A DNA stretch of 64,000 nt from Flavobacterium cutihirudinis (GTDB lineage: Bacteria > Bacteroidota > Bacteroidia > Flavobacteriales > Flavobacteriaceae), in NCBI RefSeq assembly GCF_003385895.1, contig NZ_QRDQ01000007.1, positions 1,054,001 to 1,118,000 of the forward strand. Reading direction: 5' to 3'. A program made the translations under genes and the position numbers. Shown here piece after piece: positions 109-23,588 of this stretch. Numbering within the stretch: position 1 is the stretch's first letter; the number at the start of each line of letters is the position of its first letter. Below the pieces are notes generated by a model. That model saw only the letters and a list, made by a program, of their open reading frames with translations. It was not told the DNA's origin and searched no databases.

Positions 109-2511
109 TTATTCTTCTAAAGCTCCCATCAGCTGTTCCATGCCAAAATTCAATAAGAAATCACTATAATAGCTATCAAAGACATCCATTATGTATTCAT
201 CAATAGTTACGTCTACATCAATACCATCTTTTAATCTAGTCATAGTGTAGTTTCGTCTTTTAGTTATCATGTATAGAAATAGTGTGTGAAAATAAACGGA
301 GGAAATATATTTTCGCTGTGCTGTGACAATTTGGTCTTCATTCTTCAATTTAGAACGATGACTTAAGAAGACATGACTGTCTAGATTAATGAAAATTTCT
401 TCCAATTTGTCGCCCTCCGAAGAAGGATACATGACAGTTTTTCGATCCATAGTAATTCCTCTTTCCTCTAATACAGTCCAGTCTTTTTCATATATTTTTT
501 GAAGTTTTGGTAGTCCAATTTGATCAAGGTCCTCTTCTGGTTCAGGGACAGCTTCTTTGGTAGATTCTCTATCAGTGATCTTAACTAAAACAATTTCTTC
601 AAATATTTTTCCTGGGGACGTTAAAGAAGCTCTAATTTCTATTTCATCTCCTATATTAATATTGTTAGTTGGCTCAAGAGTAACTTTAATTGTTCCATTA
701 TTAGGACTGCTTTTAGTCACATTAAGCAATCCTGAAGCTTCGGTACTTACTCCAGCTTGGTCACCTCCATCTTTTTTATCTCGTTTAATTTTTAAAAAAG
801 ATAATTGTAATTCACCAGGTTCATCTGTTCTGTCAAAATAGTCGTTATCTATATCTGAATCAAATTTTATAATTTTCTCACCATTCTTTGGCAGACTAAT
901 TATATTAATTCCTTCCTTTTTATGGAATAAATCAAATTTGGTCGGAAATCTTTGAGGTAAAAAAGGCTTTTGTTCTATCTTAGGTTTGGATATATTGGAT
1001 GAGATTTTTTTGACTTCTTCTTTTTTTTCATCTAATTTTAAAGTGTTCTGAAGTAATTTAAAAAGCTCACTGTCCTTAGGTAAATTTTTAGCAAAAGATT
1101 TAATTAATTCGGAAGTATCTTCACTTTCTAAACCGATAGTTTCTTTTCTTCGTCTGTTAATTTCATCTAGCTGACTTTTTCGTAATTTTTTACCTAAATA
1201 ATCGCGTAAAGCATTAGCTTCTTCGCCATGTTTTAGTCTATCACGAGAAGCCATAAATAATTCTTCTCTAAAATCTGGATTCATACTGGTACAATCAACA
1301 TGAATTAATAGATAATCTTTTAATAGATTGAATTTTAGAGTTCTTGTAATAAACTCAGAAGAATAATTTCCATGGACTTGTCCGTTTATAGAAAACATTA
1401 CGGACATATTATTTTTAAAAAACCTGCTCCTAATAATATCTTTACTTTTTTTTAAGTCATGTTTATCTGTTTTAGGTTTAAAAACATAACAGGTAACCTT
1501 AGCACTTCCAAATAGTTCGTCATCATAATCTTCTGAAAAATAAGTATCTATGTAATCACTTTGAGAATCTTCAAGTCTTCTCTTCAACCCAAATAAATCA
1601 AGTTCCAAAACTTTATTGTTTGGATATCGATCTTTATTGTCAACTGTCAGGATAGGCAGTACCGGTTCGAAAAGAAACTCATTTAAACTTTGGTTCAAAT
1701 CTTGAGCAAATCCTGAATAACCAACAGGAAACTGGTATGAATACATTTTAATTATTGTACCGGTTTTAAATTTTCTTCCATTTAACTTTAAATCTAATTC
1801 AGTAATTGGAAAATTTGGAATTTCATTTTCGATTTTTAAAAATTCAAAATGACTTGAACGTCTGTTTTCACCAGATTCACTGATTCTTCTCTGCCTAATT
1901 AGTGTAAATCCAAAATTACCTGAATTATCAAATCGTTTGGAACCTATAAGTTGGTATCTTCTTTTCCCGCAGAAAACTAAAGCACCGCTTCCTCCCATAT
2001 TATATTTACCTTGTACAAATTGAATATTAATTTTATTTCCCCTTACTAAAGAAAGAAAAGTATTTTCAAATTGATTCGGATGCTGGCCTTCTCCATTATC
2101 ATAAATAATAACAGAAGTGTTTTTTGGTGGTCCATCGGCAATAATTTGAATGTCTTCTGATTGTTTTCGTCTATTTTGTTTTAGATCCCAATTTTTATAG
2201 TCAGGATAAAACATTTTTATGGCTTGCTCCATTGATTGTGGAGCATCATTAGAGACTGGAGAAATATCTTTTTCTAAGCACTTTTTTGTTAAAATTGCAT
2301 CAATTGAATTTGTTACCTTCTCTACTAAAGCCGCGATAGGGCTAGATTGCTGGTTTCTAACAATACCAAACATATTTTCATTACCACCAAGGGGAGCCCA
2401 ATTTTTGTCAGCAAATTTATCAGGATATTTATGTAATAATTCTTCAACCTTATCTTCAGTAGAACATAGATACAGTTCTTGAAACAATTTCTCGTTACTA
2501 ATTTCTCCCAT
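109..2511 (-). CDS. GHKL (Hsp90-like) ATPase-domain protein of unknown function
   Basis: This 800-aa protein has an N-terminal GHKL/Bergerat ATP-binding fold. The N-box lies at about residues 62-73 (LVEKVTNSIDAI), with Glu64 and Asn68 as the expected Mg/ATP ligands. The G1 box DNGEG is at 138-142, and a glycine-rich lid GKYNMGGSGAL at about 168-178. The rest is a long charged region without a motif I recognise; there is no histidine-kinase dimerisation domain and no membrane segment. It starts 3 bp after the stop of the cysteine desulfurase gene, so the two are almost certainly co-transcribed, desulfurase first. Known GHKL proteins include Hsp90, MutL, gyrase B, MORC and several defence ATPases. 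Large MORC-like ATPases beside sulfur-transfer genes suggest DNA modification or defence. That role is inferred from context; only the ATPase fold is read from sequence. Confidence 0.75.
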   Translation of the reverse strand: MGEISNEKLFQELYLCSTEDKVEELLHKYPDKFADKNWAPLGGNENMFGIVRNQQSSPIAALVEKVTNSIDAILTKKCLEKDISPVSNDAPQSMEQAIKMFYPDYKNWDLKQNRRKQSEDIQIIADGPPKNTSVIIYDNGEGQHPNQFENTFLSLVRGNKINIQFVQGKYNMGGSGALVFCGKRRYQLIGSKRFDNSGNFGFTLIRQRRISESGENRRSSHFEFLKIENEIPNFPITELDLKLNGRKFKTGTIIKMYSYQFPVGYSGFAQDLNQSLNEFLFEPVLPILTVDNKDRYPNNKVLELDLFGLKRRLEDSQSDYIDTYFSEDYDDELFGSAKVTCYVFKPKTDKHDLKKSKDIIRSRFFKNNMSVMFSINGQVHGNYSSEFITRTLKFNLLKDYLLIHVDCTSMNPDFREELFMASRDRLKHGEEANALRDYLGKKLRKSQLDEINRRRKETIGLESEDTSELIKSFAKNLPKDSELFKLLQNTLKLDEKKEEVKKISSNISKPKIEQKPFLPQRFPTKFDLFHKKEGINIISLPKNGEKIIKFDSDIDNDYFDRTDEPGELQLSFLKIKRDKKDGGDQAGVSTEASGLLNVTKSSPNNGTIKVTLEPTNNINIGDEIEIRASLTSPGKIFEEIVLVKITDRESTKEAVPEPEEDLDQIGLPKLQKIYEKDWTVLEERGITMDRKTVMYPSSEGDKLEEIFINLDSHVFLSHRSKLKNEDQIVTAQRKYISSVYFHTLFLYMITKRRNYTMTRLKDGIDVDVTIDEYIMDVFDSYYSDFLLNFGMEQLMGALEE

Positions 2512-2514
2512 AAA

Positions 2515-3666
2515 TTAATTTGCTAATTGGATTAAAGTTTCTTTAATACTACTAATAACAGTCAATATTTCTTGCTCAGTGTTTTTATTGCTCAGACTAA
2601 ATCTGATAGCAGAGAATGCATCTGTATCATTTAGGCCCATTGCTAATAAAACATGTGAGGGTTCAAATAAAGCAGAGGTACAAGCTGAACCGTTACTTAC
2701 TGCTATTGTTTGATATCTATCTATAAACATGTTGGCATCAAAATTTGGAAAACAGGCATTTATAGTATTATAGAGACGATGCTCTTTACTACCATTAATA
2801 AAGACACCTCTGATGTTAAGTAATTCTATTTCCAGAATATCCCTCAATGATTTAATATAAGTGGTATTCTCTGTCATTTCTAGAGATGCAATTTCACATG
2901 CTTTAGCAAAACCAACAATTGCTGGAACGTTCAGAGTACCACTTCTAAGCCCACGCTCATGTCCTCCGCCATGTTGTATAGGGAAAATCTGTCTTGGTGA
3001 AACTGTTTCTTGATTAATATATAATGCTCCTATTCCCTTCGGGCCATAAAATTTATGCGCAGAAAAACATAATAAGTCTATATGATTAAATTCAGTAATG
3101 TTAATTGGTAATTTACCAACTGCCTGAGTAGCATCAGTCATTAACAATACTTTCTTAGAATTAGTAATTGTACTAATTTCCTTAATTGGTTGTATAACTC
3201 CGGTTTCATTATTTACCCACATGATACAAACTAACAGTGTATCTTGCCTAATTGAAAGAATAAGATTCTCAATATCTATTAATCCATTGGGATTGACGGG
3301 AAGATATTCAATTTCAAACCCAACAGTTTCTAAAAATTTACAAGTGTCTAAAACTGCCTTATGTTCAGTTTGCAAGGTTATTATATGTCTTTTAGAATTA
3401 TTGGGATCTAATGCGATTCCTTTTAATGCAATATTTATACTTTCTGTGGCACCTGAAGTAAAAATAATTTCTTTCGGATCGCTATTGATCAAAGATGAAA
3501 CTATTTCTCTGGAATTTTCTACAATTTTTTTTGCTGCAAGTCCAAAATGGTGTGTACTTGATGCGTTTCCATAATTATTTTTAAAATAGGGGTACATCGC
3601 CTCAATAACGCGATCATCAATAGCAGTTGTTGAATTATTATCAAGATATATTAATTCGTTATTCAT
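2515..3666 (-). CDS. cysteine desulfurase (IscS/NifS/DndA family)
   Basis: This 383-aa PLP enzyme of class-V aminotransferase type removes sulfur from L-cysteine and carries it as a persulfide. The PLP lysine is Lys205 in the SAHK motif. His102 (TEHKAV) and Asp178 (TDATQAVG) are the usual cofactor contacts. The persulfide cysteine is Cys329 in GSACTSALFEPSHVL. Length is normal for the family. It is the first gene of a two-gene minus-strand operon with the GHKL ATPase. There is no IscR, IscU, IscA, Suf or tRNA-thiolation partner beside it, and it sits in accessory DNA near conjugation genes. This points to a dedicated sulfur donor, as DndA or SspA is for DNA phosphorothioation, rather than the housekeeping IscS. 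That assignment is inference: no DndB-E-like gene is visible in the window. Confidence 0.9.
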   Translation of the reverse strand: MNNELIYLDNNSTTAIDDRVIEAMYPYFKNNYGNASSTHHFGLAAKKIVENSREIVSSLINSDPKEIIFTSGATESINIALKGIALDPNNSKRHIITLQTEHKAVLDTCKFLETVGFEIEYLPVNPNGLIDIENLILSIRQDTLLVCIMWVNNETGVIQPIKEISTITNSKKVLLMTDATQAVGKLPINITEFNHIDLLCFSAHKFYGPKGIGALYINQETVSPRQIFPIQHGGGHERGLRSGTLNVPAIVGFAKACEIASLEMTENTTYIKSLRDILEIELLNIRGVFINGSKEHRLYNTINACFPNFDANMFIDRYQTIAVSNGSACTSALFEPSHVLLAMGLNDTDAFSAIRFSLSNKNTEQEILTVISSIKETLIQLAN

Positions 3667-6665: not shown

Positions 6666-6896
6666 ATGAAACCACGTACTATTCTTTATCTACTATTGGT
6701 CATTTTTAATCTTGTGAGCCTTTATTTCATCATATCATTATTCAGTTATGATGAAATAGTGGGCTACATTATTACGGGTGGGAGAAAAAGCAGTGACCCT
6801 AGAAAATTGGCGTATCTGTTATTTATTACTTGCCTGTTGAACCTTTATTTTTTGTCATTCATAATGATCGAAAATTCCTTTAAGGATAAGATCTAA
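6666..6896 (+). CDS. small two-span membrane protein, unknown
   Basis: ATG at 6666 (MKPRTILYLLLVIFNLVSL) is preferred over a TTG at 6651. The 76-aa product has two membrane spans: about residues 5-25, and 49-69 (LAYLLFITCLLNLYFLSFIM). They are joined by a loop containing GGRKSSDPRK. It lies 33 bp after the lipoprotein gene on the same strand, probably co-transcribed. No family is recognised. Confidence 0.6.
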   Translation: MKPRTILYLLLVIFNLVSLYFIISLFSYDEIVGYIITGGRKSSDPRKLAYLLFITCLLNLYFLSFIMIENSFKDKI

Positions 6897-6947
6897 TCTA
6901 CATACAAGATCATTATTCTTTTCCATAATTAGCTTAACTATGATATT

Positions 6948-7844
6948 ATGATGAAGGATTTGATAAATATTGAAATGAAGAATTTGCCTATTTCTGGACT
7001 TGATGTACATATTATTAAAAAGTACATTGTAAAAACTGCGGCAGATGATTCCTTTCTCGTAAATAATTACTCAATTATATTGATAAAGTCTGGACAATTT
7101 AAAATACGTCTTAGTGATTTTACACAGGAATTGCTGCCACATGATTTGTTGGTAATCCCAAAAAATTCGTTCTGCACTATTATGGAAGTCAAAGGGAGAC
7201 TGCAGTTACTGCTTCTCTCTTTTACCTCAGACTTTGCTTTTGAAAACTGCTTAAAAAAAGAATTAGTTGATTCATTTAATTTTCTCCTTGGTGAACCTTC
7301 GTCAAAAATAGCCCTTGGTGATAAAGATTTTTTGGTATTGTCATTAATTTACAAACTAATCTGCTTTGTTAATAAAGATGCAGTAGGCAATGGACAGGAC
7401 CTAGAACTGCAACGCATAAGTTTCAACCTTTTCTTATATGAGCTTAAATTTATTTTTAATAGATCAGATTTACAAACGCAGAACAGTTTTACCCGGCAGG
7501 AAGGTCTTACGATTAAGTTTCTGACTATTTTGACAATTCACTGTAAAAAGCAGCACAGTGCCAAGTTCTATGCAGGTGTGTTATTTGTTACAAGAGGTTA
7601 TTTAAATCGAACTGTCAAACAAATAACAGGAAAGACCGTTAAAAGCCTCATAGATGTGGCAATTATAAATGAAATAAAGAATCTTCTTGAAAATTCACAA
7701 TCATCCATTGCCGTCATTGGACAAGATTTTGAATTTAGTAATCTGGCGAACTTTAGTGCCTTTTTTAGAAAACACACTTCGCTTTCTCCTTCTGAATATC
7801 GTCAAAAGACTGTTGGGAGATTTAAAACGTCAGATTTTCGTTGA
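6948..7844 (+). CDS. AraC-family transcriptional regulator
   Basis: This 298-aa protein has an N-terminal cupin-like sensing part (VNNYSIILIKSGQFKI, then LLPHDLLVIPKNSF). A C-terminal AraC double helix-turn-helix spans about residues 185-290. The second HTH ends in the family signature FSNLANFSAFFRKHTSLSPSEYR. The first HTH (KFYAGVLFVTRGYLNRTVKQITG) is standard for Bacteroidetes AraC regulators. It lies between unknown cargo genes and may control them or the conjugation operon; the sequence does not show which. Confidence 0.85.
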   Translation: MMKDLINIEMKNLPISGLDVHIIKKYIVKTAADDSFLVNNYSIILIKSGQFKIRLSDFTQELLPHDLLVIPKNSFCTIMEVKGRLQLLLLSFTSDFAFENCLKKELVDSFNFLLGEPSSKIALGDKDFLVLSLIYKLICFVNKDAVGNGQDLELQRISFNLFLYELKFIFNRSDLQTQNSFTRQEGLTIKFLTILTIHCKKQHSAKFYAGVLFVTRGYLNRTVKQITGKTVKSLIDVAIINEIKNLLENSQSSIAVIGQDFEFSNLANFSAFFRKHTSLSPSEYRQKTVGRFKTSDFR

Positions 7845-7868
7845 CTAATTTAAATTAAAACTACTGTC

Positions 7869-9062
7869 ATGATTACTATATATCCTTTAGAATGGATAGA
7901 TTCATTGATATTGCTTACCCTAAATCCTAATAAATCAAATATCGGTAATCTGTCACAGAGTGATTTGGTTTTTATAACTGAGAATCTTTCTAGAGAATCT
8001 CATAAAATTCAAATCCAGATGAAAAATGAAATTTTTGCTCTGCAGAAAAAGAGGCAGATCCGTCTTCTGGTAAGAAAATATCATTCAACCTTAGTTTATC
8101 TCCTTGATAATATTATTGAAAATCAAAATAATGAAGCTCTCAAAGGCGGATTTTTTTTGCGTATCAGTGAATCTATAATAAATACATTGGACGATTTATT
8201 ATATTTTATTGAAAATCGTTATCCTAACTATTTGAATCTTGATGAGCGTGTTCCTGTCCCATATTTATTAGTTTCAAGAAAGGAAATACTTTTAAAGATA
8301 GGAAGACTATCAAAGAAAAAGACAACTATCACTGATACCAACCAAGTTCTTCAGATCGTTATCGATGCTATAACTGTGTCAAATCAAATTAACGCAGGAA
8401 ACAAAATTACATACAGAGAAGTATTATATCAAAAAGAGCTTTTAAAGAAATTGGAGATGCAACTGGCAAGTGAAAGCAAATCAAACTTTTATTCTGCCGT
8501 AGACGAGTTATTGATAGAAGTAAATTTTAATGACAGTTTTTATATTAGTCATTTTATTAAGAATATAGTGAATCGTCTTAAATGCCAGGAAACATTGGCT
8601 GATAAAATTGGTGAATTGTTATTCTGTTATAAAGAGTTCAGTCAATTATCCTCGAGCGAAAGAATAGCATTTGATCCTTCAAAGCAGAATATAAATTTTA
8701 TGCTCGAAAATTGGTTTAAGCACGAAATAAAATATCTTGAAAGAAAAAAGCAACTTTCTGCAGAATTCGATGAAAACAATGCAGCCTCTGAATCAATGCA
8801 AATAGGAGAAGATAAAGTTGAATGTACGCTTTCAACTGATCAAATGGCATTGATTCTCAGAGCTGGTGATGAATCAAGAGTTTTGAAAGCTAAATCAATG
8901 AGTTTGGTTTTTAAAACTATAGTTCCATTTCTTTCGACTCCTTTCAAAAAGAATCTTTCTTATCAATCGGTAAGAAGTAAATCGTATAATGCTGAAGACA
9001 GGGATAAAGAAATTGCTATTCAAACCTTAAAAAAAATTATAGAAAAGATCAAGTCTTATTAA
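7869..9062 (+). CDS. unknown protein of conjugative elements (RteC-like?)
   Basis: This 397-aa, soluble, mainly helical protein is lysine-rich, with no signal peptide or membrane span. Its last 80 residues (STDQMALILRAGDESRVLKA, later LSTPFKKNLSYQSVRSKSYN) resemble from memory the C-terminal block of proteins found next to Bacteroidetes conjugative transposons, such as RteC, which controls excision in CTnDOT. That similarity is weak recollection and should be tested by profile search. It follows the AraC gene by 24 bp and precedes the Pmp3-like gene and tra operon, so a regulatory role in transfer or excision is possible. Confidence 0.6.
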   Translation: MITIYPLEWIDSLILLTLNPNKSNIGNLSQSDLVFITENLSRESHKIQIQMKNEIFALQKKRQIRLLVRKYHSTLVYLLDNIIENQNNEALKGGFFLRISESIINTLDDLLYFIENRYPNYLNLDERVPVPYLLVSRKEILLKIGRLSKKKTTITDTNQVLQIVIDAITVSNQINAGNKITYREVLYQKELLKKLEMQLASESKSNFYSAVDELLIEVNFNDSFYISHFIKNIVNRLKCQETLADKIGELLFCYKEFSQLSSSERIAFDPSKQNINFMLENWFKHEIKYLERKKQLSAEFDENNAASESMQIGEDKVECTLSTDQMALILRAGDESRVLKAKSMSLVFKTIVPFLSTPFKKNLSYQSVRSKSYNAEDRDKEIAIQTLKKIIEKIKSY

Positions 9063-9106
9063 TAGCCGCAAAACTTTTAGTATTAAACTTGAAAAGAAAA
9101 TAGTTA

Positions 9107-9125
9107 TGTTTTCGTAACGAAAACA
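9107..9125. promoter_or_regulatory. perfect 9+1+9 palindrome upstream of the Pmp3-like gene
   Basis: TGTTTTCGT-A-ACGAAAACA is a perfect inverted repeat, 62 bp before the start at 9187 and 45 bp after the stop at 9062. No T-run follows, so it looks like an operator for a dimeric repressor rather than a terminator. The likely binder is unknown. Confidence 0.45.
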
Positions 9126-9186
9126 CTGAAAAGTTGTCTATTAATATACAATCACTTACTCAAAATCATCATCAAATAATATAATT

Positions 9187-9381
9187 ATGATTCTAATTGC
9201 AATCTTACTACCGTGGCTCTCTTTTATATTAAGAGGCAAAATATTTACTGCTGTCATTTGCCTCATTTTGCAGATAACTTTAATTGGCTGGCTACCGGCA
9301 GCAATTTGGGCCGTAGTATCCCTTCAAAATGCTAGAGCTGATAGGCGAACCAATAAACTTATAAGAGCTATGAGGAGATAA
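9187..9381 (+). CDS. YqaE/Pmp3-family small membrane protein
   Basis: This 64-aa, two-span protein matches the Pmp3/YqaE layout: a first span (LIAILLPWLSFILRGKIFTA), a second span (VICLILQITLIGWLPAAIWAV) and a basic tail (ADRRTNKLIRAMRR). The GK between the spans and the GWLPAAIWA motif are characteristic. Family members influence membrane potential and stress tolerance. Related genes occur beside conjugation operons in Bacteroidetes, but a role in transfer is unproven. A strong terminator follows at 9410, separating it from the tra operon. Confidence 0.75.
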   Translation: MILIAILLPWLSFILRGKIFTAVICLILQITLIGWLPAAIWAVVSLQNARADRRTNKLIRAMRR

Positions 9382-9409
9382 TCTTCCCCGCGGCACCACA
9401 TTTTTAGTG

Positions 9410-9504: not shown

Positions 9505-9615
9505 TTGTAGAGGCAGTATCGTAGTTGTTTCTTTGACCTTTAAAATAAATCATGTCAAACATTTTGAAGATTTATTTAGTAGAGAGATGAATGTTGAATA
9601 ATAAATGATGATGCT

Positions 9616-10089
9616 ATGTTTACAAATATTTCATGGAGCAGTTATTTAACTGTTTTAGGTGTGGTGGTCTTGATCTGGTATTTTATAATACTATTAAAGT
9701 TTTATTGGAAAGATCTTTTGAGTTTCTTTTCAGGAGAAAAGAAACTCAAGTTTGCTTCACTTAAAGGTATAACCAAAAAGAATGGTCAAGACGCTGAAGA
9801 GCATAAATCTTTGTCTTCGTCATTTTCAGAATCATTCGACACTTTGGAAGACGCTGAAGAACTTTCTGTCCGAATACTTCAGACTTTGGAAGAAAGTAAT
9901 GAAAAGGACTTTTCAAAAGAGCACTTTCAAAATTATTTAAGAATGGTTCTCGAAGAATATCCGTATGTGAAGATTTCTTCACTGCGACAAAATATTAATA
10001 AACTAATGGTAACTGAATCTTCAAAATATCCAAATCTGCTTTTGACTTTAAGTGAAGCTGACAGCTTATGGGAAGGAACTGTTTTCTAG
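9616..10089 (+). CDS. first gene of the tra operon, membrane-anchored, unknown
   Basis: This 157-aa protein has one N-terminal membrane span (YLTVLGVVVLIWYFIILLKFYW) and a hydrophilic cytoplasmic tail with an acidic, serine-rich linker (SLSSSFSESFDTLEDAEELS). It sits immediately upstream of TraE, where Bacteroidetes elements often carry a poorly conserved small membrane protein. I do not recognise a family. Its 3' end overlaps a possible 28-aa ORF at 10068. Confidence 0.65.
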   Translation: MFTNISWSSYLTVLGVVVLIWYFIILLKFYWKDLLSFFSGEKKLKFASLKGITKKNGQDAEEHKSLSSSFSESFDTLEDAEELSVRILQTLEESNEKDFSKEHFQNYLRMVLEEYPYVKISSLRQNINKLMVTESSKYPNLLLTLSEADSLWEGTVF

Positions 10090-10154
10090 AATTCAGCGGA
10101 GGAATAATCCCTGTTCTCTCTGGTGCGGTATGGCTTTATGTGACAAGGAAATAG
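10068..10154 (+). CDS. possible 28-aa single-span microprotein
   Basis: ATG 10068 to TAG 10152-10154 encodes a 28-residue peptide whose core is SGGIIPVLSGAVWLYV, ending in T-R-K. This is one membrane span with a positive-inside tail. It overlaps the end of the preceding gene by 22 bp and ends 55 bp before TraE. A hydrophobic helix with a basic stop-transfer end suggests a coding constraint, but the short length makes the call tentative. It could instead be a frameshifted remnant of the preceding gene. Confidence 0.35.
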   Translation: MGRNCFLEFSGGIIPVLSGAVWLYVTRK

Positions 10155-10209
10155 AGCTGCAACAGTGATATTCCTCTGCTTTTTAAATAAGTGTATTGAA
10201 AACTTTAAA

Positions 10210-10557
10210 ATGATGGTTATGAAAAATTGTGGATGGAAATTAAAGGAATTAGATGAGGAAAAAGTATTGTCTTACAGCATACTTGTATTGTTGTTGGTAT
10301 ATGAAACAAAAATTTATGCCCAAGATGGTGTAGCCGGAATTAATGAAGCGAATCAAAAAGTGAGAAGCTATTTTGATGCAGGAACAGAATTAATGTATGC
10401 TGTAGGCGCAATACTGGGCTTAATAGGAGCAGTTAAGGTTTATCAGAAATGGAATGCAGGTGATCCGGATACCGGCAAAGTAGCAGCGGCGTGGTTTGGA
10501 AGTTGTGTCTTTCTAGTGGTAGTGGCAACAGTAATTAAATCCTTTTTCGGAGTTTAA
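10210..10557 (+). CDS. traE: conjugative transfer protein TraE (DUF4134, VirB2-like)
   Basis: The frame is open from a GTG at 10165, but ATG 10210 or 10219 is the more likely start. The protein has a leader-like hydrophobic segment ending in YAQDG, then GINEANQKVRSYFDAG and two membrane spans (MYAVGAILGLIGAVKVYQKW; FGSCVFLVVVATVIKSFF). The WNAGDPDTGK loop between the spans is typical of DUF4134. Its small size, two spans and position just before TraF and TraG fit a VirB2-like pilin or channel subunit of the Bacteroidetes type IV secretion system. Confidence 0.85.
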   Translation: MMVMKNCGWKLKELDEEKVLSYSILVLLLVYETKIYAQDGVAGINEANQKVRSYFDAGTELMYAVGAILGLIGAVKVYQKWNAGDPDTGKVAAAWFGSCVFLVVVATVIKSFFGV

Positions 10558-10569
10558 ACACAAGAACTA

Positions 10570-10884
10570 ATGAGTAACAGTGTTTACCAGATCAACAAAG
10601 GAATTAATCAAAGTATAGAATTTAAAGGCTTAAAAGCTCAGTATATCTGGTATTTGGGAGGAGGTGTTGTATCTCTTATGATCATTTTTGCAATCCTTTA
10701 TATCATTGGGCTTCCTTCGCTATTATGCGTTGGTCTCGTTGGGATTGCTGGTGCTTTTTTAGTTTTTAAAATATACAAAATGAGTAATCAGTATGGAGAA
10801 TTCGGCATGATGAAGGCACTAGCCAAGAAGCAGATTCCAAAATGTATTAAAGTTTATAGTAGAGGTATTTTTTTAAAGATATAG
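10570..10884 (+). CDS. traF: conjugative transfer protein TraF (DUF4133, VirB3-like)
   Basis: This 104-aa protein matches DUF4133: YQINKGINQSIEFKGLKAQY at the start, two adjacent membrane spans, then FKIYKMSNQYGEFGMMKALA and a basic tail. VirB3-like proteins sit in the inner membrane and work with the VirB4 ATPase encoded just downstream (TraG). It lies 12 bp after traE and 33 bp before traG. Confidence 0.9.
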   Translation: MSNSVYQINKGINQSIEFKGLKAQYIWYLGGGVVSLMIIFAILYIIGLPSLLCVGLVGIAGAFLVFKIYKMSNQYGEFGMMKALAKKQIPKCIKVYSRGIFLKI

Positions 10885-10917
10885 CTATAGAACGTTAATA
10901 GTAAAAATGAAGAGGAG

Positions 10918-13386
10918 ATGGACAAGAGGATGAAAGATTTACTGCCGATTATGGCAGTCGAGCATGACTGTATTTTGTCAAAGCATGGTGATGTTACGGT
11001 AGCATTCAGAGTAGAATTGCCTGATATTTTTACATTATCGGATCAGGAATATGAGGCTTTTCATCAGTCATGGATCAAGGCACTAAAGGTATTACCTAAG
11101 TTTTGTGTTTTTCACAAGCAGGATTGGTTTTTAGAAAAGAAATATAAAGCTGATTTCACAAGTGATGACAGTAGTTTTTTGACAAGAAGCAGTGAACGAT
11201 TTTTTAATGAAAGACCTTTTCTGGAGCATTCCTGTTATATTATGCTTACCAAGAAACCGCAAGGAAGGAAGAATTCAAGTTCTTTATTTTCCAGTCTTAT
11301 AAGAAATAAATTAGTTCCTGAGGAAACTCTGAATACACAGCTGTTGCAGGACTTTATTGACTGCACCGGACAGTTTAAGAGAATATTGGAAGACAGCGGT
11401 TTTGTTAAACTTATCCGATTGAAAAACAATTCACTCAGAAGTGAAAGCAGAAAAATTGGTCTTATTGAGCAGTACTGTTTCTTATCAGATAACGAAGATT
11501 CATTTATTTATAAAGACATTAAATTTGATGAAGGACTTGCAGTAGGAGACAAATACTGCCAGCTATTTACCCTCGGTGATGCGGCTGACCTTCCAGGCCT
11601 TTGTGGATCTAGAATTAATTTTGACCGATATTCAACTGATAAAACCAAATTCAGTGTAGGATTTGCATCAACTTTAGGGCAGCTTTTGTCGTGCAACCAT
11701 ATTTACAATCAGTACATTTTTATTGAAGATGCACAGAAAACTATACAAAAGCTGGAGAGTAAAAGATTAAGACTTCAATCACTGTCGGCTTACAGCAGGG
11801 AGAATATGATTGCCAGAGATGCCACTAATGATTTCCTGAATGAAGCTGTATCTCAGCAAAGACTTCCAGTAAAGGCACATTTTAATGTGCTGGCCTGGAG
11901 TACTCATAAAGAAGAACTGAAAGATATCAAAAGCAAAGTATCGTCAGCACTTGCTCAGATGGATTCAGCAGCCAAACAGGAAACGGTTGGAGCTCCACAG
12001 ATTTATTGGGCTGGAATACCGGGGAATGAAGCGGATTTTCCAATGAATGATACTTTTGACACTTTCACAGAGCAGGCAGTATGTTTTCTAAACATGGAAA
12101 CAGGTTACAGGTCTTCTTTAAGTCCAACGGGTATCAGACTTGGAGATCGATTAACGGGCAAACCCGTACATGTGGACATTAGCGATGAGCCTGTAAAAAT
12201 GGGAATATGTACTAACAGGAATAAGTTTATACTAGGCCCTTCAGGAAGCGGTAAATCTTTTTTTACTAATCACATGGTAAGAAGTTATTATGAGCAGGGT
12301 ACACATATAGTTCTTGTAGATGTTGGACACAGCTATAAAGGACTCTGTGATATGGTCGGCGGCTATTATTTTACTTATGATGAAAAGAGCCCAATCCGTT
12401 TTAATCCTTTCTATATTTCTGAAGGTGATAATCTGGATACTGAGAAAAAGGAAAGTATTAAAACGCTGCTTTTGGCTCTGTGGAAAAAAGATGACGAAAC
12501 CTTTAACCGAAGTGAGTATGTGGCGCTTTCCAATGCTCTTCAGCTATATTATGAAAAGCTGGATAATGACTCTAGTATTTTTCCCTGTTTTGATAGCTTT
12601 TATGATTTTTTGAAAAATGATTTTGTAAAGATACTGGAAGACGATAGAGTCAAAGAAAAGGATTTTGATGTAAACAATTTTCTCTATGTACTCCGCCCAT
12701 ATTATAAAGGCGGTGAGTTTGAATATCTGCTTAATGCCACTGAGAATCTGGAACTTTTGAAAGAGCGTTTTATTGTATTCGAATTGGACAATATTAAAGA
12801 TCATCCAATTTTATTTCCTGTAGTGACAATCATTATAATGGAAGTTTTCATAAGTAAAATGCGCAAACTAAAAGGTGTCCGCAAGATGATTTTGATCGAG
12901 GAAGCATGGAAAGCCATTGCCAAAGAAGGAATGTCCGAATATATTAAGTACTTATTTAAAACTGTTAGGAAGTTCTTTGGGGAAGCCATTGTAGTCACAC
13001 AGGAGGTAGAAGATATCATTTCTTCACCAGTAGTAAAACAAGCCATTATAAATAACAGCGACTGCAAAATCCTATTGGACCAGAGCAAATATCAAAACAA
13101 GTTCGATCAGATACAGGAACTTCTGGGGCTTACAGATAAGGAAAAAGCTCTCGTACTTTCAGTTAATAAAGCCAATGATCCCGATAAAAAGTATAAAGAA
13201 GTATTTATTTCTCTGGGTGGAAGGCTTTCAAAGGTCTATAGGACAGAAGTTTCTTTGGAGGAATATCTGGCTTACACGACTGAGGAAAGCGAGAAGGTAA
13301 AAATGAACGCCTATGCTAAAAAGTTTGACGGTGACATAAAAAAAGGCATAGCTGCAATGGCGCAAGATTTAAGAGATGGAATTTAA
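10918..13386 (+). CDS. traG: conjugation ATPase TraG (VirB4-type)
   Basis: This 822-aa AAA+ ATPase energises assembly of the conjugation channel. Walker A is GPSGSGKS at about residues 439-446 and Walker B is KMILIEEAW at about 656-664. The N-terminal third is the VirB4 interaction domain beginning MKDLLPIMAVEHDCILSKHG. Length is normal for Bacteroidetes TraG. An AGGAG lies directly against the ATG at 10918, so ATG 10930 may be the better-placed start. The stop abuts the next start (ATG 13387) with no spacer, indicating tight coupling. Confidence 0.93.
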   Translation: MDKRMKDLLPIMAVEHDCILSKHGDVTVAFRVELPDIFTLSDQEYEAFHQSWIKALKVLPKFCVFHKQDWFLEKKYKADFTSDDSSFLTRSSERFFNERPFLEHSCYIMLTKKPQGRKNSSSLFSSLIRNKLVPEETLNTQLLQDFIDCTGQFKRILEDSGFVKLIRLKNNSLRSESRKIGLIEQYCFLSDNEDSFIYKDIKFDEGLAVGDKYCQLFTLGDAADLPGLCGSRINFDRYSTDKTKFSVGFASTLGQLLSCNHIYNQYIFIEDAQKTIQKLESKRLRLQSLSAYSRENMIARDATNDFLNEAVSQQRLPVKAHFNVLAWSTHKEELKDIKSKVSSALAQMDSAAKQETVGAPQIYWAGIPGNEADFPMNDTFDTFTEQAVCFLNMETGYRSSLSPTGIRLGDRLTGKPVHVDISDEPVKMGICTNRNKFILGPSGSGKSFFTNHMVRSYYEQGTHIVLVDVGHSYKGLCDMVGGYYFTYDEKSPIRFNPFYISEGDNLDTEKKESIKTLLLALWKKDDETFNRSEYVALSNALQLYYEKLDNDSSIFPCFDSFYDFLKNDFVKILEDDRVKEKDFDVNNFLYVLRPYYKGGEFEYLLNATENLELLKERFIVFELDNIKDHPILFPVVTIIIMEVFISKMRKLKGVRKMILIEEAWKAIAKEGMSEYIKYLFKTVRKFFGEAIVVTQEVEDIISSPVVKQAIINNSDCKILLDQSKYQNKFDQIQELLGLTDKEKALVLSVNKANDPDKKYKEVFISLGGRLSKVYRTEVSLEEYLAYTTEESEKVKMNAYAKKFDGDIKKGIAAMAQDLRDGI

Positions 13387-14082
13387 ATGAAAGAGAAAAT
13401 GAAAGCAAAATTAATTACCTGCATGATATGTCTGCTACTCATTGGCAATCCTGCAAGATCTGCAAATAATACAGTGGCGTTGCCAATACTGGAGATCGTT
13501 AAAGCAGTTACTAAGAAAGTTATTAAAGCAATTGACCTCAGAATTCAAAAACTGCAAAATAAGACAATCTGGCTTCAGAATGCCCAGAAAAAAGTTGAAA
13601 ATGTATTGTCTAAATTAAAACTGGATGAAATTTCTGATTGGACGAAAAAGCAGAAAGATTTATATCAAGGCTATTATGAAGAACTGGCAAAAGTAAAATC
13701 TATTATAACTTACTATCAGAGGATAAAGGATATTACAAAGAAGCAGACAAAACTGGTTGAGGAATATGAAAGAGCTTGGAATCTGTTCAAGCAGGATTCT
13801 CACTTTAAAGAAAGTGAAATTCAGTATATGGAACGCGTTTATTCCGGGATTCTAGAGGAGAGTGTCAAGAATATTGACCAGATTTTTTTAATTCTGGATT
13901 CTTTCTCAACGCAGATGAGTGATTTAAAAAGACTGGAGATAATAAATAAAGCTGCTGATCAAATCGATTCCAATTACGATGATTTGACACTTTTCAATCA
14001 ACAGAATGTAATGCTTAGTCTTCAAAGAGCAAAAACTGAAGCGGAAGTAAATCAGGTCAAACAATTTTACGGAATTCCGTAA
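13387..14082 (+). CDS. secreted conjugation protein, TraI-like (first of three paralogues)
   Basis: This 231-aa protein has a signal peptide (MICLLLIGNPARSAN) and a long helical body (IDLRIQKLQNKTIWLQNAQ onward). The C-terminal part contains ESEIQYMERVYSGILEESVK and ends VMLSLQRAKTEAEVNQVKQF. This is the periplasmic protein usually called TraI after traG in Flavobacterium-type elements and is thought to be VirB5-like. The two genes that follow share its layout and several positions (Y.ER.Y..LLE...... LD, and LQRAKE near the end), so the three look like diverged copies. Confidence 0.75.
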   Translation: MKEKMKAKLITCMICLLLIGNPARSANNTVALPILEIVKAVTKKVIKAIDLRIQKLQNKTIWLQNAQKKVENVLSKLKLDEISDWTKKQKDLYQGYYEELAKVKSIITYYQRIKDITKKQTKLVEEYERAWNLFKQDSHFKESEIQYMERVYSGILEESVKNIDQIFLILDSFSTQMSDLKRLEIINKAADQIDSNYDDLTLFNQQNVMLSLQRAKTEAEVNQVKQFYGIP

Positions 14083-14096
14083 TAAAAGTAAATATC

Positions 14097-14717
14097 ATGA
14101 AAAAATTAATCATACTGCTTTTCACGGGATTTCTTTTAAATCAAGGAATTCACGCGCAGGCCAAGCAGAGAAAGGAGCTGTTGCTACAGATCGCTGCACT
14201 TCAGGTTTACATGGATTATGCTAAAAAAGGATATTCAGCTGTTTCCAAAGGTCTGAATTTCATTGGTGATGTGAAGAAAGGAGAAGTCAATCTTCATGGT
14301 AATTATTTCGCTTCACTTTTGAAAATTAATCCCAAAATAAAGAACTATTATAAAACAGCAGAGATTATCTCCTTGCAGTTTAAGATAATGAAAATGTATA
14401 AAAGGACTTATACTAAACTCAAGACTGATGATTTATTTCAGGGAAATGAGCTCGATTATATTGAGCGTTCTTTTGAAAGACTACTAGAAAGCTGCAATGA
14501 AACATTAGATCAGCTTCTGGTTCTTACTACTGATTCAGAACTGGAACTTAAAGATGACCAAAGGATAGAGCGTATAGATGATCTATATAAAACGATGGTT
14601 GGTAATTACGATTTCTGTTTGTTTTTTAGTAATGAAGCAAAGTTACTGTCATTGTCAAAATCTCATGAAAAAAGAAGTGCTGAATCCACACAAAGTATTT
14701 ACGGACTTAAAAATTAA
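14097..14717 (+). CDS. secreted helical protein in the tra operon (second of three)
   Basis: This 206-aa protein has a signal peptide (MKKLIILLFTGFLLNQGIHAQ) and an all-helical body: YMDYAKKGYSAVSKGLNFIG, then a segment around NYYKTAEIISLQ, then LDYIERSFERLLESCNETLD. Such proteins are often annotated as TerB-family tellurite resistance proteins in Bacteroidetes, but the position and signal peptide favour a periplasmic transfer component. It shares blocks with its neighbours at 13387 and 14722. The stop is 4 bp before the next start. Confidence 0.7.
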   Translation: MKKLIILLFTGFLLNQGIHAQAKQRKELLLQIAALQVYMDYAKKGYSAVSKGLNFIGDVKKGEVNLHGNYFASLLKINPKIKNYYKTAEIISLQFKIMKMYKRTYTKLKTDDLFQGNELDYIERSFERLLESCNETLDQLLVLTTDSELELKDDQRIERIDDLYKTMVGNYDFCLFFSNEAKLLSLSKSHEKRSAESTQSIYGLKN

Positions 14718-14721
14718 CGCC

Positions 14722-15357: not shown

Positions 15358-15361
15358 AACG

Positions 15362-17478: not shown

Positions 17479-18753
17479 ATGGAGCAACAAATAATATCAC
17501 TCAAAGAATCTAAAAGAAGAAAAATGCTTTTAGTTCTGCCTCTTATAATACTTCCTTTTATAACCATATTATTCTACATTTTAGGTGGTGGAAGAATGGA
17601 AGCAGAAACGGCCAAACGAGAAATCAAAAAGGGATTTAACTTTAATCTTCCCATTCCTAAATTTAAAGAAGATTCATCACTGGATAAAATGAGTTACTAC
17701 GACCAGGCAGCAGTCGATTCTATCAAATTGCAGGAACAAATTAAAAAAGACCCTAATTATTCCAATCAAAAAATATTTGAAGGATCAATAGATGATTTTA
17801 AAGATAAAGATTTAGGAAGAGGAACCAGTGCTTTTAACTCATCATCTTATCAAGATGCAAACGAACAGAAAGTTTATCAAAAACTTAAAGCACTTCAAAA
17901 AGTAATCAGCCAGCCTGCTGTACCTGATAATTATGGTCAGGATATGAGGGAGTTTGAAAACTATGGATCATCAAAAGGTGAATCAGATGCGATAAAAAAC
18001 TTAGAGCATATGATGTCACAAATGGGCACTTCGCAAGAACCTGATCCAGAACTAAAACAACTTGGTGGTATGCTGGAAAACATTCTGGATATTCAGCATC
18101 CATCACGTGTACAGGAAAAGTTAAAGCAAGCTTCAGAGATAAACAAAGGAAAAGTTTTTACTGTTAATCGTAAAAAAGATGTAGATAATACCACTTCACT
18201 ACAACAAAATATAGCATCTCCAAATCTTTTAAAATCAAACTCGTTTTATTCAATTGATGAAAATTTAGATTCTGAACCGCAGCAGAATTCAATCGAAGCA
18301 ATAATACATGAGACACAAACTATTGTAAACGGCTCAATTATAAAATTAAGATTAAAAACTGACGTATTTCTTCAGGGCATACTTATTCCTAAGAACACTT
18401 TTTTGTATGGCATGGCATCTTTAAAAGGAGAACGGCTGGAGGTTAAAATAAATAATATCCAGTATCAAAATTCAATTTTCCCTGTTGAACTCTCAGTTTA
18501 TGACTTAGATGGAATTGACGGGATCTATATTCCAGGAGCAATAAGCAGAGACGTAGCTAAGACCTCTGCGGACCGTTCTCTACAGACTTTAGGACTAAAT
18601 GGTGTTACCGACTCCTGGGGAGCACAGGCTGCGGAGATGGGAATTGAAGCTGCCAAAAGCCTGATGAGCAAAAAGATTAAACTTATAAAAGTTGTGGTAA
18701 AGGCTGGATATCAGGTTTTACTCTATGATGAAAAACAAAAGAATTTGAAATAA
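17479..18753 (+). CDS. traM: conjugative transfer protein TraM (VirB10-like)
   Basis: This 424-aa protein has a cytoplasmic start and one span (MLLVLPLIILPFITILFYIL). A long Gln/Lys-rich flexible periplasmic linker follows, then a C-terminal VirB10-like domain from about residue 270 (IEAIIHETQTIVNGSIIKLR). That domain contains the FLQGILIPKNTFLYGMASLK and YDLDGIDGIYIPGAISRDV blocks typical of TraM. VirB10-like proteins span the envelope and relay energy to the channel. It is followed 15 bp later by traN. Confidence 0.92.
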   Translation: MEQQIISLKESKRRKMLLVLPLIILPFITILFYILGGGRMEAETAKREIKKGFNFNLPIPKFKEDSSLDKMSYYDQAAVDSIKLQEQIKKDPNYSNQKIFEGSIDDFKDKDLGRGTSAFNSSSYQDANEQKVYQKLKALQKVISQPAVPDNYGQDMREFENYGSSKGESDAIKNLEHMMSQMGTSQEPDPELKQLGGMLENILDIQHPSRVQEKLKQASEINKGKVFTVNRKKDVDNTTSLQQNIASPNLLKSNSFYSIDENLDSEPQQNSIEAIIHETQTIVNGSIIKLRLKTDVFLQGILIPKNTFLYGMASLKGERLEVKINNIQYQNSIFPVELSVYDLDGIDGIYIPGAISRDVAKTSADRSLQTLGLNGVTDSWGAQAAEMGIEAAKSLMSKKIKLIKVVVKAGYQVLLYDEKQKNLK

Positions 18754-21876: not shown

Positions 21877-22041
21877 ATGGAAGATGAAGAGGAAAACACA
21901 AGAGGGAAAATAACCCCAGAGAAAGCTATGAATATGTTAAACTCTGAGGGTATGAATGTTACAATCGAAGAAGCAACTGAAATTTTGCTATTTTTACGAA
22001 AAATGGCTCATGTAGCCGTATCTAAATTTTTGGAGTCATGA
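21877..22041 (+). CDS. 54-aa protein coupled to the serine recombinase
   Basis: ATG 21877 to TGA 22039-22041 encodes a 54-residue acidic helical protein. It contains ITPEKAMNMLNSEG, VTIEEATEILLFLRKMA and HVAVSKFLES. Its stop overlaps the recombinase start in an ATGA (22038-22041), so translation is coupled. Small proteins with the same ITPEKA...EILxFLRK pattern precede serine recombinases in Bacteroidetes elements (recollection). Likely roles are a recombination directionality factor or a regulator of the recombinase; neither is shown here. Confidence 0.7.
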   Translation: MEDEEENTRGKITPEKAMNMLNSEGMNVTIEEATEILLFLRKMAHVAVSKFLES

Positions 22042-23588
22042 GTATTATAGCAGATTTATACATACGTGTAAGCACGGACGAACAAGCAGAAAAAGGTTAT
22101 TCGCAAAGAAATCAGGAAGAAGTTTTAAGGAAATATTGCTCAATAAATTATATTGAAGTGCGTAACGTTATTTATGAGGATCATTCCGCTAAGACATTTA
22201 ATAGACCACAATGGAATAAACTTTTACTGAATCTGAAAAAACAGAAAAACACAACTGATCTGGTCTTGTTTACCAAATGGGATCGTTTCAGCAGAAACGC
22301 CGGAGATGCCTATCAGATGATAAGTTTACTAAGAAAGTTAGGTGTAGAGCCTCAAGCGATTGAGCAACCTCTTGATTTGGCAATTCCAGAAAATAAAATG
22401 ATGCTGGCTTTTTACTTAGCGGCTCCTGAAGTTGAAAACGATCGTAGGGCTTTAAATACCTTTCATGGAATGAGAAGGGCGAAAAAAGAAGGTAGATATA
22501 TGGGTATTGCACCGTTTGGATATGCTAATAAATCCAAAGAAGACGGAAGTAAATATATTGCACTTGTAGAACCTGCCGCTTCTGTTATGCGCTGGATATT
22601 TGAAGAATTGGCTAAAGGAATATTCAATACAGAGCAAATATATCATATGGCTTGCAGAAGAGGATTTAAAAGAACTAAAAATAACATGTGGGGCCTAATA
22701 AGAAATCCTGTTTATTGTGGTAAAATATTTATACCAAAATATAAAGATGAAGAAAGCAGATTTGTTACAGGGCAGCATGAGCCACTTATTTCTGAAGGCC
22801 TTTTTTATAATGTACAAGATATCTTAGATGGAAAATCACGCCTTTACAGACCTAAAATTAAAACTGTCGTTGATTTCCCGTTAAGAGGCTTTTTTATCTG
22901 TCCAAAGTGCCAAAAGAAGCTGCAAGGAAGTAAATGTAAAGGAAGACACAAATACTATCATTATTACCACTGTGAAGCGCAATGTAAGTTTAGAATTAAC
23001 TCTGAAATCGCTAATGAACTTTTTATTGAAGATCTCAGTAAGTATCAGCCAATAGCTGAAGTTAAGAAATTATACAGCTCGATTTTATATGAAACACATC
23101 GTGATCTCGCAAATAATGCCGGCGAACAGAAAAGAAGACTTGTAGAACAGATAAAAGATTATGAACTCAGATTAAGCAATGCAAGAGATCTTCTTCTTAC
23201 ATCAAAAATTGAAGCTGATGATTATAAGCTAATGAAAGATGACTATGGTGCACGAATTGCAAACCTTGAACGTGAGCTATCAACAGTCACTAAAGATAAG
23301 CATAGTATTGAAGAGCTACTGGTAAAGGGGGTTGACAACCTTATCAAACTTAGTGATTCATATTTGAAAAGGGATTTATCTGATGCAAGAAGCCTAATTG
23401 GTTTAGTTTACCCCGAAAATTTTACAATTCACGAAAATAAAGTACAAACCGCTAGAGTGAACAAAATAGTGGAGTCTATTTACCTCATTAATAAACAGTT
23501 AAAAGCAAAAAAAAACGGGACAAAAGATGATTTTTATCTTTTGTCCCGAGAAGTGACCTCGACTGGATTCAAACCAGTAACCTTCTGA
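22038..23588 (+). CDS. large serine recombinase (element integrase)
   Basis: This 516-aa site-specific recombinase starts with a resolvase domain; YIRVSTDEQA contains the nucleophile Ser12, and TKWDRFSRNA the conserved arginines. The recombinase domain spans about residues 160-270 (GIAPFGYANK; GLIRNPVYCGKIF). A zinc ribbon begins near residue 287 (CPKC ... HCEAQC), and a coiled coil runs over about 355-430. These enzymes integrate and excise mobile elements without high-energy cofactors. The last residues are unusual: codons for KKNGTKDDFYLLSRE lie in the tRNA terminator hairpin, and the final 11 residues (VTSTGFKPVTF) with the stop lie in antisense tRNA-Arg sequence. The C-terminus is therefore set by the integration site or attP. 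Confidence 0.93.
   Translation: MSIIADLYIRVSTDEQAEKGYSQRNQEEVLRKYCSINYIEVRNVIYEDHSAKTFNRPQWNKLLLNLKKQKNTTDLVLFTKWDRFSRNAGDAYQMISLLRKLGVEPQAIEQPLDLAIPENKMMLAFYLAAPEVENDRRALNTFHGMRRAKKEGRYMGIAPFGYANKSKEDGSKYIALVEPAASVMRWIFEELAKGIFNTEQIYHMACRRGFKRTKNNMWGLIRNPVYCGKIFIPKYKDEESRFVTGQHEPLISEGLFYNVQDILDGKSRLYRPKIKTVVDFPLRGFFICPKCQKKLQGSKCKGRHKYYHYYHCEAQCKFRINSEIANELFIEDLSKYQPIAEVKKLYSSILYETHRDLANNAGEQKRRLVEQIKDYELRLSNARDLLLTSKIEADDYKLMKDDYGARIANLERELSTVTKDKHSIEELLVKGVDNLIKLSDSYLKRDLSDARSLIGLVYPENFTIHENKVQTARVNKIVESIYLINKQLKAKKNGTKDDFYLLSREVTSTGFKPVTF
23511..23548 (-). terminator. rho-independent terminator of tRNA-Arg, inside the recombinase ORF
   Basis: A perfect 13-bp stem (23516-23528 with 23536-23548) has a 7-nt loop. 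On the minus strand it is followed by a run of T (the A-tract 23508-23515 on plus). It lies 5 nt beyond the tRNA 3' end, so it ends tRNA-Arg transcription. The same bases encode the penultimate residues of the recombinase on the plus strand. Confidence 0.9.

What the first reader, a model, noticed from the sequence alone, without database searches (positions are those of the whole stretch)
109..3666. Two-gene operon pairing a cysteine desulfurase with a GHKL ATPase: possible DNA-sulfur or defence system
The two genes are 3 bp apart, in accessory DNA next to conjugation genes, without iron-sulfur assembly partners. Cysteine desulfurases in such settings (DndA, SspA) feed sulfur to DNA phosphorothioation. 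Large GHKL/MORC-like ATPases occur in defence loci. No Dnd/Ssp modification or restriction gene is visible, and a plus-strand gene may end just beyond the ATPase, so the module may be a minimal or novel two-gene unit.
Basis: partly seen in the sequence, partly recalled or inferred. Interest (0 to 1): 0.75.

Follow-up and report, generated by a model that had tools for sequence, protein, structure and literature searches.

The report
Unrecognised ATPase of DNA-sulfur defence
The two genes are the end of a larger anti-virus gene cluster of a kind that marks the cell's own DNA with sulfur; one of them makes an unnamed ATP-driven protein that travels with this system in many bacteria, so it is a good candidate for one of the system's missing parts.

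Summary
The two genes are real (109-2511 and 2515-3666, minus strand, 3 bp apart) but not a minimal unit: the window edge cut the locus. Just left lie sspB, sspC, sspD (PADLOC E 1e-104, 0, 1e-93), a DUF262-HNH gene and a DUF262+SIR2 pair. With the SspA/DndA-type desulfurase this is a full SspABCD phosphorothioation gene set, on a 114-kb block 99.96% identical to one in another Flavobacterium whose PheT is only 91% identical. The novel part is the 800-aa GHKL ATPase, unnamed in PADLOC and NCBIfam. Of its 80 closest relatives (265 found), 71 have an ssp gene nearby and 7 more have SspD elsewhere in the assembly; Alphaproteobacterial plasmid relatives at 42% identity are linked too. GHKL distances follow SspABCD, but not the DndB-like or DUF262 neighbours; known SspE sits among such neighbours in two loci. 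Best reading: a paraMORC/MutL-like ATPase belonging to a subtype of Ssp, probably on the restriction side. Linkage is shown; mechanism is inferred.

The parts
109..2511 (-). 800-aa GHKL ATPase (Ssp-linked, paraMORC/MutL-like): GHKL+S5 module about 43-463, Ig-like sandwich about 516-650, C-terminal alpha/beta part about 665-790 without a match shown. Partner genes lie left of the window (window = L009 minus 18000), all + strand: HTH L009:6255-6716, DUF262-HNH 6776-8578, Tin-like 8617-9393, sspB 9568-10449, sspC 10439-13660, sspD 13653-14762, NDT-like 14741-15172, unknown 15153-15767, DUF262 15820-16887, SIR2-type 16890-17753
2515..3666 (-). sspA-type cysteine desulfurase, 383 aa, 3 bp upstream of the ATPase gene
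10918..13386 (+). conjugation ATPase TraG on the same mobile block
   Evidence: Pfam P-loop_TraG 5.5e-235
17479..18753 (+). conjugative transposon protein TraM on the same mobile block
   Evidence: Pfam Transposon_TraM 2.5e-54
22038..23588 (+). large serine recombinase near the right end of the mobile block; its 3' end overlaps a tRNA-Arg gene (23553-23627, minus strand)
   Evidence: Pfam Resolvase/Recombinase; tRNA; near-identity with G689 ends at window 23796

Best explanation
The pair is the minus-strand arm of a complete Ssp DNA-phosphorothioation gene island on a recently transferred block that carries conjugation genes. SspA supplies sulfur, and SspB, SspC and SspD place phosphorothioate (PT) marks on host DNA (by homology). 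The GHKL protein is a dedicated extra component of one subtype of Ssp. It most likely works like MutL and the paraMORCs: ATP closes a dimeric clamp on DNA, and that state reports or uses the PT mark to license neighbouring, interchangeable effectors, here most likely the DUF262+SIR2 pair and perhaps the DUF262-HNH protein. Shown by sequence: gene content, intact ATP-binding boxes, GHKL+S5 fold (predicted), linkage across phyla, correlated divergence with SspABCD. Inferred: PT chemistry in this strain, clamp action, a restriction-side role, and which effector it drives.
For: SspB/C/D beside the pair. An ssp gene near GHKL in 71 of 80 relatives, SspD elsewhere in the assembly for 7 of the other 9, and the last two on about 3.25-kb contigs. 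Genome samples: in 6 of 6 family genomes with a match at 55% identity or more it is adjacent (Fisher p 1e-9); 5 of 7 strong hits in 395 phylum genomes are adjacent to SspD (p 5e-6). Plasmid relatives in Hymenobacter, Ensifer and Devosia lie beside annotated PAPS reductase genes and, in Hymenobacter and Devosia, DUF4007 genes. Pairwise distances of GHKL correlate with SspB, SspC, SspD and SspA (r 0.67, 0.63, 0.61, 0.85; n 55, 62, 67, 23; p 0.001) but not with DndB-like (0.01, n 24) or DUF262 (0.04, n 22) genes of the same loci. SspE (E 2e-100 and 4e-92 to the solved protein 6jiv) lies beside GHKL and SspD in L077 and L096. Relatives outside Ssp sit beside other DNA-marking enzymes: C5-MTase plus MutH-like nuclease (L035), N4/N6-MTase (L039, L167). 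Fold like Hsp90 and MORC3 ATPases.
Against: No experiment. SspBCD with SspE or SspFGH is reported to protect E. coli JM109 from plasmids carrying the named genes only (PMC8092258, passages). Only 5 of 21 genomes with strong SspD in the phylum sample, and 6 of 12 with full-length DUF4007 in the family sample, carry it, so it is not needed for Ssp in general. One strong homologue (G125, 36-37%) is in a methylase locus without ssp genes. GHKL correlates with SspBCD less tightly (0.61-0.67) than these do with each other (0.91-0.96), so it too is exchanged; and one cassette gene, f7, correlates weakly with GHKL (0.28, p 0.006). The DUF262-HNH protein here is closest to the solved 7p9k (5e-93), which I recall as BrxU, a stand-alone type IV enzyme, so it may be an independent companion. 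The C-terminal part of GHKL is unassigned. The loci were selected for GHKL, so its constancy among them is by construction; SspBCD presence and turnover of neighbours are not.
Confidence: 0.5

Rival explanations
1. The GHKL protein is itself the restriction effector: the ATPase part gates a nuclease in the C-terminal 280 residues that attacks DNA lacking PT, as GHKL is thought to gate the Shedu nuclease in VcSduA.
For: GHKL-nuclease fusions exist (VcSduA and paraMORC3; passages and one section). The C-terminal part keeps invariant polar residues (D553, R561, N709, H742) in 59 rows, including two relatives from loci without ssp genes.
Against: No nuclease fold or motif recognised: Ig-like match only, middling Z 8.9 at best, remainder unmatched in the rows shown. 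One of six recurring neighbour types lies in the fetched stretch of 61 of 68 loci with SspD, so other effectors are at hand.
Confidence: 0.2
2. The GHKL protein belongs to the modification arm: with SspA it helps SspBCD place PT marks or limits their density (a DndB-like regulator).
For: Directly downstream of SspA in the window and in 13 of 80 loci (L044, a near copy of the window locus, included); distances correlate with SspA (r 0.85, n 23).
Against: SspBCD with a desulfurase works without it in the described systems (PMC8092258, passages). Relatives lie beside C5 and N4/N6 methylases, which as a rule need no such helper (recalled).
Confidence: 0.17
3. The GHKL protein is an independent defence gene that merely shares the island.
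For: Defence genes cluster in islands; this locus carries several.
Against: Linkage with SspBCD in nearly all close relatives in several phyla, and correlated divergence that the DndB-like and DUF262 genes of the same loci do not show.
Confidence: 0.08
4. A minimal two-gene unit of desulfurase and GHKL ATPase.
For: 3-bp spacing; SspA-GHKL adjacency in 13 of 80 loci.
Against: sspBCD lies next door here and at least one of sspB, C or D near 70 of 80 relatives; SspA is near in only 25 of 80.
Confidence: 0.02

Closest known systems
SspABCD-SspE phosphorothioation defence
   Same: SspA, SspB (DUF4007), SspC and SspD homologues; two other GHKL loci carry SspE itself
   Different: A GHKL ATPase not seen in the passages read about it; the window locus lacks SspE proper (partial DUF262 match only) and has SIR2-type, DUF262, DUF262-HNH, NDT-like and Tin-like genes; sspA lies on the opposite strand with GHKL
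SspBCD-SspFGH
   Same: PT marking by SspBCD plus a separate damaging module (PMC8092258, passages)
   Different: Cannot be told: no SspF/G/H sequence was compared
MORC / paraMORC GHKL ATPases of restriction-modification operons (Iyer 2008, PMC2292703)
   Same: N-terminal GHKL plus S5 module, DNA-marking gene neighbourhood, scattered distribution
   Different: Paired with DNA backbone sulfur marking rather than methylation; own C-terminal extension; the published MORC motif was not found by a pattern search
VcSduA (Shedu with GHKL domain, PMC12137116)
   Same: GHKL ATPase in phage defence, hypothesised there to control an effector
   Different: VcSduA carries its nuclease in the same chain and works alone; no nuclease domain recognised here

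Membership tests
Ssp phosphorothioation system | SspB, SspC and SspD homologues in one cluster | tested here: met
   PADLOC SspB 1.3e-104, SspC 0, SspD 1.5e-93
Ssp phosphorothioation system | SspA or IscS cysteine desulfurase with its Lys and Cys motifs | tested here: met
   SspA model 7e-155; SAHKFYGP and GSAC present; SspA and DndA models score alike, so the type rests on its partners
Ssp phosphorothioation system | PT in genomic DNA at a short motif | not testable with these tools
   needs iodine cleavage or mass spectrometry
SspABCD-SspE | SspE effector in the locus | tested here: not met
   ten left neighbours against all PADLOC models: only a partial SspE match (5e-6) in the DUF262-HNH gene, which belongs to HEC-05 (7e-192); genome-wide search with one SspE model finds only the same place (2.5e-5)
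SspBCD-SspFGH | sspF, sspG and sspH genes | not tested
   no SspF/G/H sequence was compared
Dnd (DndBCDE) | DndC, DndD and DndE beside DndA | tested here: not met
   ten left neighbours scanned: SspD only weakly matches DndC (2e-6); no DndD or DndE match
Type 4 BREX | PglZ and BrxL with BrxC, BrxP and DUF4007 | tested here: not met
   no PglZ or BrxL match among the ten left neighbours; SspC and SspB match BrxC and BrxP more weakly than Ssp models
paraMORC / MORC-like GHKL ATPases | GHKL ATPase boxes plus S5 domain | tested here: met
   boxes by pattern and invariant in 59 rows; S5 from the predicted fold
MORC sensu stricto | GhXhhpXXRhl motif in the S5 domain | tested here: inconclusive
   no match by a pattern with residue classes of my choice, window protein only
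paraMORC3 / GHKL-Shedu | C-terminal RE-fold nuclease | tested here: inconclusive
   no Pfam match and no nuclease among the fold matches shown; the last 135 or so residues are barely tested

The most novel reading that the evidence does not exclude
The GHKL protein is a licensing hub: one ATP-driven clamp that reads PT marking by SspBCD and can be combined with many interchangeable effectors (SspE, DUF262+SIR2, DUF262+kinase, DndB-like plus a small partner, a second GHKL plus GIY-YIG nuclease, histidine-kinase-like modules). That would make Ssp a plug-in immune platform and account for part of the sspBCD loci that have neither SspE nor SspFGH.
Probability: 0.3. Interest if true: 0.8.

Novelty: new variant of a known kind. 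Interest (0 to 1): 0.62.

Why it matters
In a published survey 2,211 of 2,678 sspBCD sets had neither SspE nor SspFGH (the paper prints this as 83.9%), and the authors raised the possibility of further restriction partners (PMC8092258, passages). This work names a specific, conserved candidate that the PADLOC and NCBIfam models and the plasmid annotations seen leave unnamed, and a set of exchangeable neighbours, so that question can be tested directly. It also ties MutL/MORC-like ATPases, described beside DNA methylases (PMC2292703), to sulfur marking of the DNA backbone.

Tried and rejected
Two-gene unit: rejected once the left flank was read. Single-locus coincidence: rejected. GHKL as a mere substitute for SspE: unlikely, as SspE and GHKL share a locus in L077 and L096. 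The upstream DUF262-HNH gene as SspE: not borne out; its best solved relative is 7p9k (5e-93), which I recall as BrxU, and no SspE entry passed 0.001. Sequence search of solved structures with the GHKL protein or its 59-row profile: no match up to E 1. C-terminal half folded alone (pLDDT 75.7, pTM 0.44): Ig-like first part only, Z at most 8.9; no match covering the last 135 or so residues was shown, which does not show a new fold. Attachment repeats of the mobile block: none of 16 bp or more found by exact match (one 14-bp word). Phage collection: no GHKL match. The plasmid relative at 26.8% (Pontibacillus) has no annotated ssp-type gene in the 14.3 kb seen; plasmid hits H5-H7 (23-29%) were not inspected.

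Literature: (open PubMed Central papers only, no preprints). Among the results listed or read I saw no report of a GHKL ATPase as part of Ssp. Lists were cut: 40 of 60, 15 of 32, 15 of 122, 13 of 14, 15 of 350. Papers were read as found passages: PMC10853773, PMC12839542, PMC8092258, PMC10952713, PMC8011034, PMC12137116, PMC9646914, PMC3506569; PMC2292703 as passages plus one section. The others were seen in listings only.

Limits: 80 of 265 relatives kept, the most similar. The tree used 77 GHKL ORFs of at least 700 aa from the 81 loci (80 plus L030) and 9 others; shorter or frameshifted ones were dropped; quick method, one very long branch (L168), and 8 of the 78 'other' rows have no ssp gene in their own stretch. 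The phylum and family counts include the window genome itself. G114 also has a second, broken GHKL copy beside SspB. In one search p 0.001 is the floor of 999 shuffles; of the changing neighbour genes only DndB-like, DUF262 and f7 were tested; f7 correlates weakly with GHKL (0.28, p 0.006) and with SspB/C/D (0.19-0.24), DndB-like weakly with SspC and SspB (about 0.2, p 0.01-0.02). Neighbour counts mean presence anywhere in the fetched stretch.

They bore out GIY-YIG for L071 (just over the cut-off; L170 below it) and the transposase-like gene of L170, confirmed SspE in L096, and moved the DUF262-HNH gene away from SspE.
Full report
What is there. Window 2515-3666 and 109-2511 are two minus-strand genes 3 bp apart. 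The first is a group-I cysteine desulfurase that the PADLOC SspA and DndA models score alike (513.9 and 512.1 bits). The second, 800 aa, has only a sub-threshold Pfam HATPase_c_3 match, nothing in PADLOC, one insignificant NCBIfam match (E 0.084) and no solved relative by sequence.

The window cut the locus. The window is G000:C1:1054001-1118000. Reading leftwards (L009; window = L009 minus 18000) gives, all on the + strand: HTH; a 600-aa DUF262 protein with DGQQR and an HNH-like C-terminus (PADLOC HEC-05; closest solved relative 7p9k at 5e-93, recalled as BrxU); a Tin-like gene; SspB (DUF4007), SspC with a Walker A motif, SspD with SGGKDS; a nucleoside-deoxyribosyltransferase-like gene; a small unknown gene; a DUF262 gene with DGQQR; and a SIR2-type gene. 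GHKL and SspA converge on this operon from the other side. All four SspABCD genes are therefore present. True SspE was not found: the ten neighbours and the genome give only a partial DUF262 match to SspE.

A mobile block. A 114.2-kb stretch (C1:963604 to window 23796) is 99.96% identical to a Flavobacterium hibisci contig. PheT, just outside it, is only 91% identical in that genome and lies on another contig. TraG, TraM and a serine recombinase next to a tRNA-Arg gene lie inside it. Recent horizontal transfer is the simplest reading; no attachment repeat of 16 bp or more was found.

The ATPase travels with Ssp. In 299 genomes of the family, 14 have any GHKL match; in the 6 with a match at 55% identity or more it lies beside SspB/C/D. 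Full-length DUF4007 occurs in 12 genomes, so half of those have GHKL. In 395 genomes of the phylum, 11 have any GHKL match and 21 have strong SspD; of 7 strong GHKL hits, 5 are beside SspD, one is a decayed copy beside SspB and a shortened SspC, and one sits in a methylase locus. Fisher p is 1e-9 and 5e-6; the window genome is counted in both. In the wider collection 265 relatives were found and the best 80 kept: SspD is nearby in 69, SspC in 68, SspB in 60, SspA in 25, at least one of the four in 71. Of the 9 others, 7 have SspD on another contig of their assembly; two (L051, L098) lie on contigs of about 3.25 kb in assemblies without an SspD match. L049 (SspA only) could not be searched further, and L084 (SspB only) has no SspD match in its assembly. 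Lineages include Bacteroidota, Nitrospirota, Poribacteria, Calditrichota and Ignavibacteriota. Annotated plasmids of Hymenobacter (50.6%), Ensifer (42.6%) and Devosia (42.2%) show the same linkage, with the ATPase called 'hypothetical protein'. The 26.8% relative of Pontibacillus is not linked in the stretch seen.

Constant and changing parts. In the 80 loci, selected for GHKL, the other genes vary: DndB-like (24 loci; 18 with f7, which I judge GIY-YIG-like by eye; Pfam finds nothing), DUF262 (21; 7 with SIR2, 11 with a protein-kinase gene), a second GHKL (11; 9 with a GIY-YIG-type gene, one of which passes the Pfam cut-off narrowly), a histidine-kinase-like double-ATPase gene (7), an AAA gene with f15 (7), an Mrr-type nuclease (5). 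Of 68 loci with an SspD ORF, 61 carry at least one of six such types in the fetched stretch. SspE itself occupies the place beside SspD and GHKL in two loci: L077 (2e-100 to the solved SspE 6jiv) and L096 (4e-92). GHKL distances correlate with SspB 0.67, SspC 0.63, SspD 0.61 and SspA 0.85, but with DndB-like 0.01 and DUF262 0.04; f7 gives 0.28 (p 0.006). SspB, C and D correlate with each other at 0.91-0.96, DndB-like with f7 at 0.75. So GHKL is inherited with the marking core, though less strictly than the core with itself, while the DndB-like and DUF262 genes turn over largely independently. Because SspE is a known restriction effector, I infer that other occupants of that place are effectors too; this is not shown.

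Where the ATPase comes from. Eight relatives without ssp genes in the stretches seen form one side of a single branch (support 99) from the 78 others (quick tree, long branches). L035 lies with a C5 methylase and a MutH-like nuclease gene, L036 with a YhcG nuclease gene, L039 and L167 with an N4/N6 methylase. This is the setting described for MORC and paraMORC ATPases (PMC2292703), where DNA looping between recognition and cleavage site was proposed. A MutL-like ATPase beside a MutH-like nuclease in L035 recalls mismatch repair (recalled knowledge).

Structure. AlphaFold2 with 59 rows: pLDDT 76.4, pTM 0.68. Residues 43-463 align with Hsp90 (Hsc82, Z 15.8, 306 residues, 4.5 A) and MORC3 (Z 13.2, 304 residues, 3.9 A). 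ATP-site residues E64, N68, D71, D138, G140, G142, G168 and G173 are invariant in 59 rows. The C-terminal part gives an Ig-like first half with middling scores and a second half without a match shown, so a nuclease there is neither shown nor excluded.

Mechanism. Shown: an SspABCD gene set, a GHKL ATPase with intact motifs, and their repeated linkage. From established families (recalled and from the passages read): SspA mobilises sulfur and SspBCD inserts it; GHKL+S5 proteins dimerise on ATP and move or clamp DNA. Inferred: the clamp links PT status to the effector genes. Rivals are a nuclease within the ATPase, a role in modification, and an independent passenger; all stay open without experiment.

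Novelty. No paper among those listed or read describes a GHKL partner of Ssp (searches; open PubMed Central only, several lists cut). The Ssp system and paraMORC ATPases are both known; their steady combination across phyla, with changing neighbours that include SspE, appears undescribed in what I saw. I rate it a new variant of a known kind.

Noticed in passing
L182, L187, L188, L189: SspBCD loci without this GHKL carry another recurring set: a distant second GHKL of about 610-640 aa with neighbours of about 510-550 and 315-322 aa. In L182 these neighbours match a superfamily-II helicase and, below the cut-off, a PLD-like domain, recalling the MORC-helicase operons of Iyer 2008.
   Followed up: partly
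L183, L184, L185, L186: Other SspBCD loci without this GHKL carry further genes: family f432 (a superfamily-II helicase in L183) with an AAA_15-type ATPase, or a histidine-kinase-like triplet (L185), so Ssp partners look more varied than SspE and SspFGH.
   Followed up: partly
L035:4914-15104: C5 methylase, MutH-like nuclease, a GHKL relative (36-37% identical), metallophosphoesterase and a second HATPase gene: a possible MutL/MutH-style restriction system.
   Followed up: partly
L169 (G554:C49): A GHKL reading interrupted by several stops beside SspB and a shortened SspC: a decaying Ssp-GHKL island.
   Followed up: no
L170 (G326), 9556-10383: A transposase-like gene (rve integrase core) sits between SspD and GHKL in a locus with SspBCD, GHKL, a second GHKL and a weak GIY-YIG match.
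   Followed up: partly
G000:C1:963604-1077796 (right end at window 23796): 114-kb block 99.96% identical to a Flavobacterium hibisci contig, ending near tRNA-Arg; holds two 2.6-kb stretches about 84% identical to each other.
   Followed up: partly
L009:14741-15172 and 15153-15767: A nucleoside-deoxyribosyltransferase-like gene and a small unknown gene occur together in 3 of 80 loci, beside SspD; role unknown.
   Followed up: no
L009:8617-9393: Tin-like gene (PADLOC Tin 5.5e-22) between the DUF262-HNH gene and sspB; in the 80-locus set it was found only in the near-identical L044.
   Followed up: no
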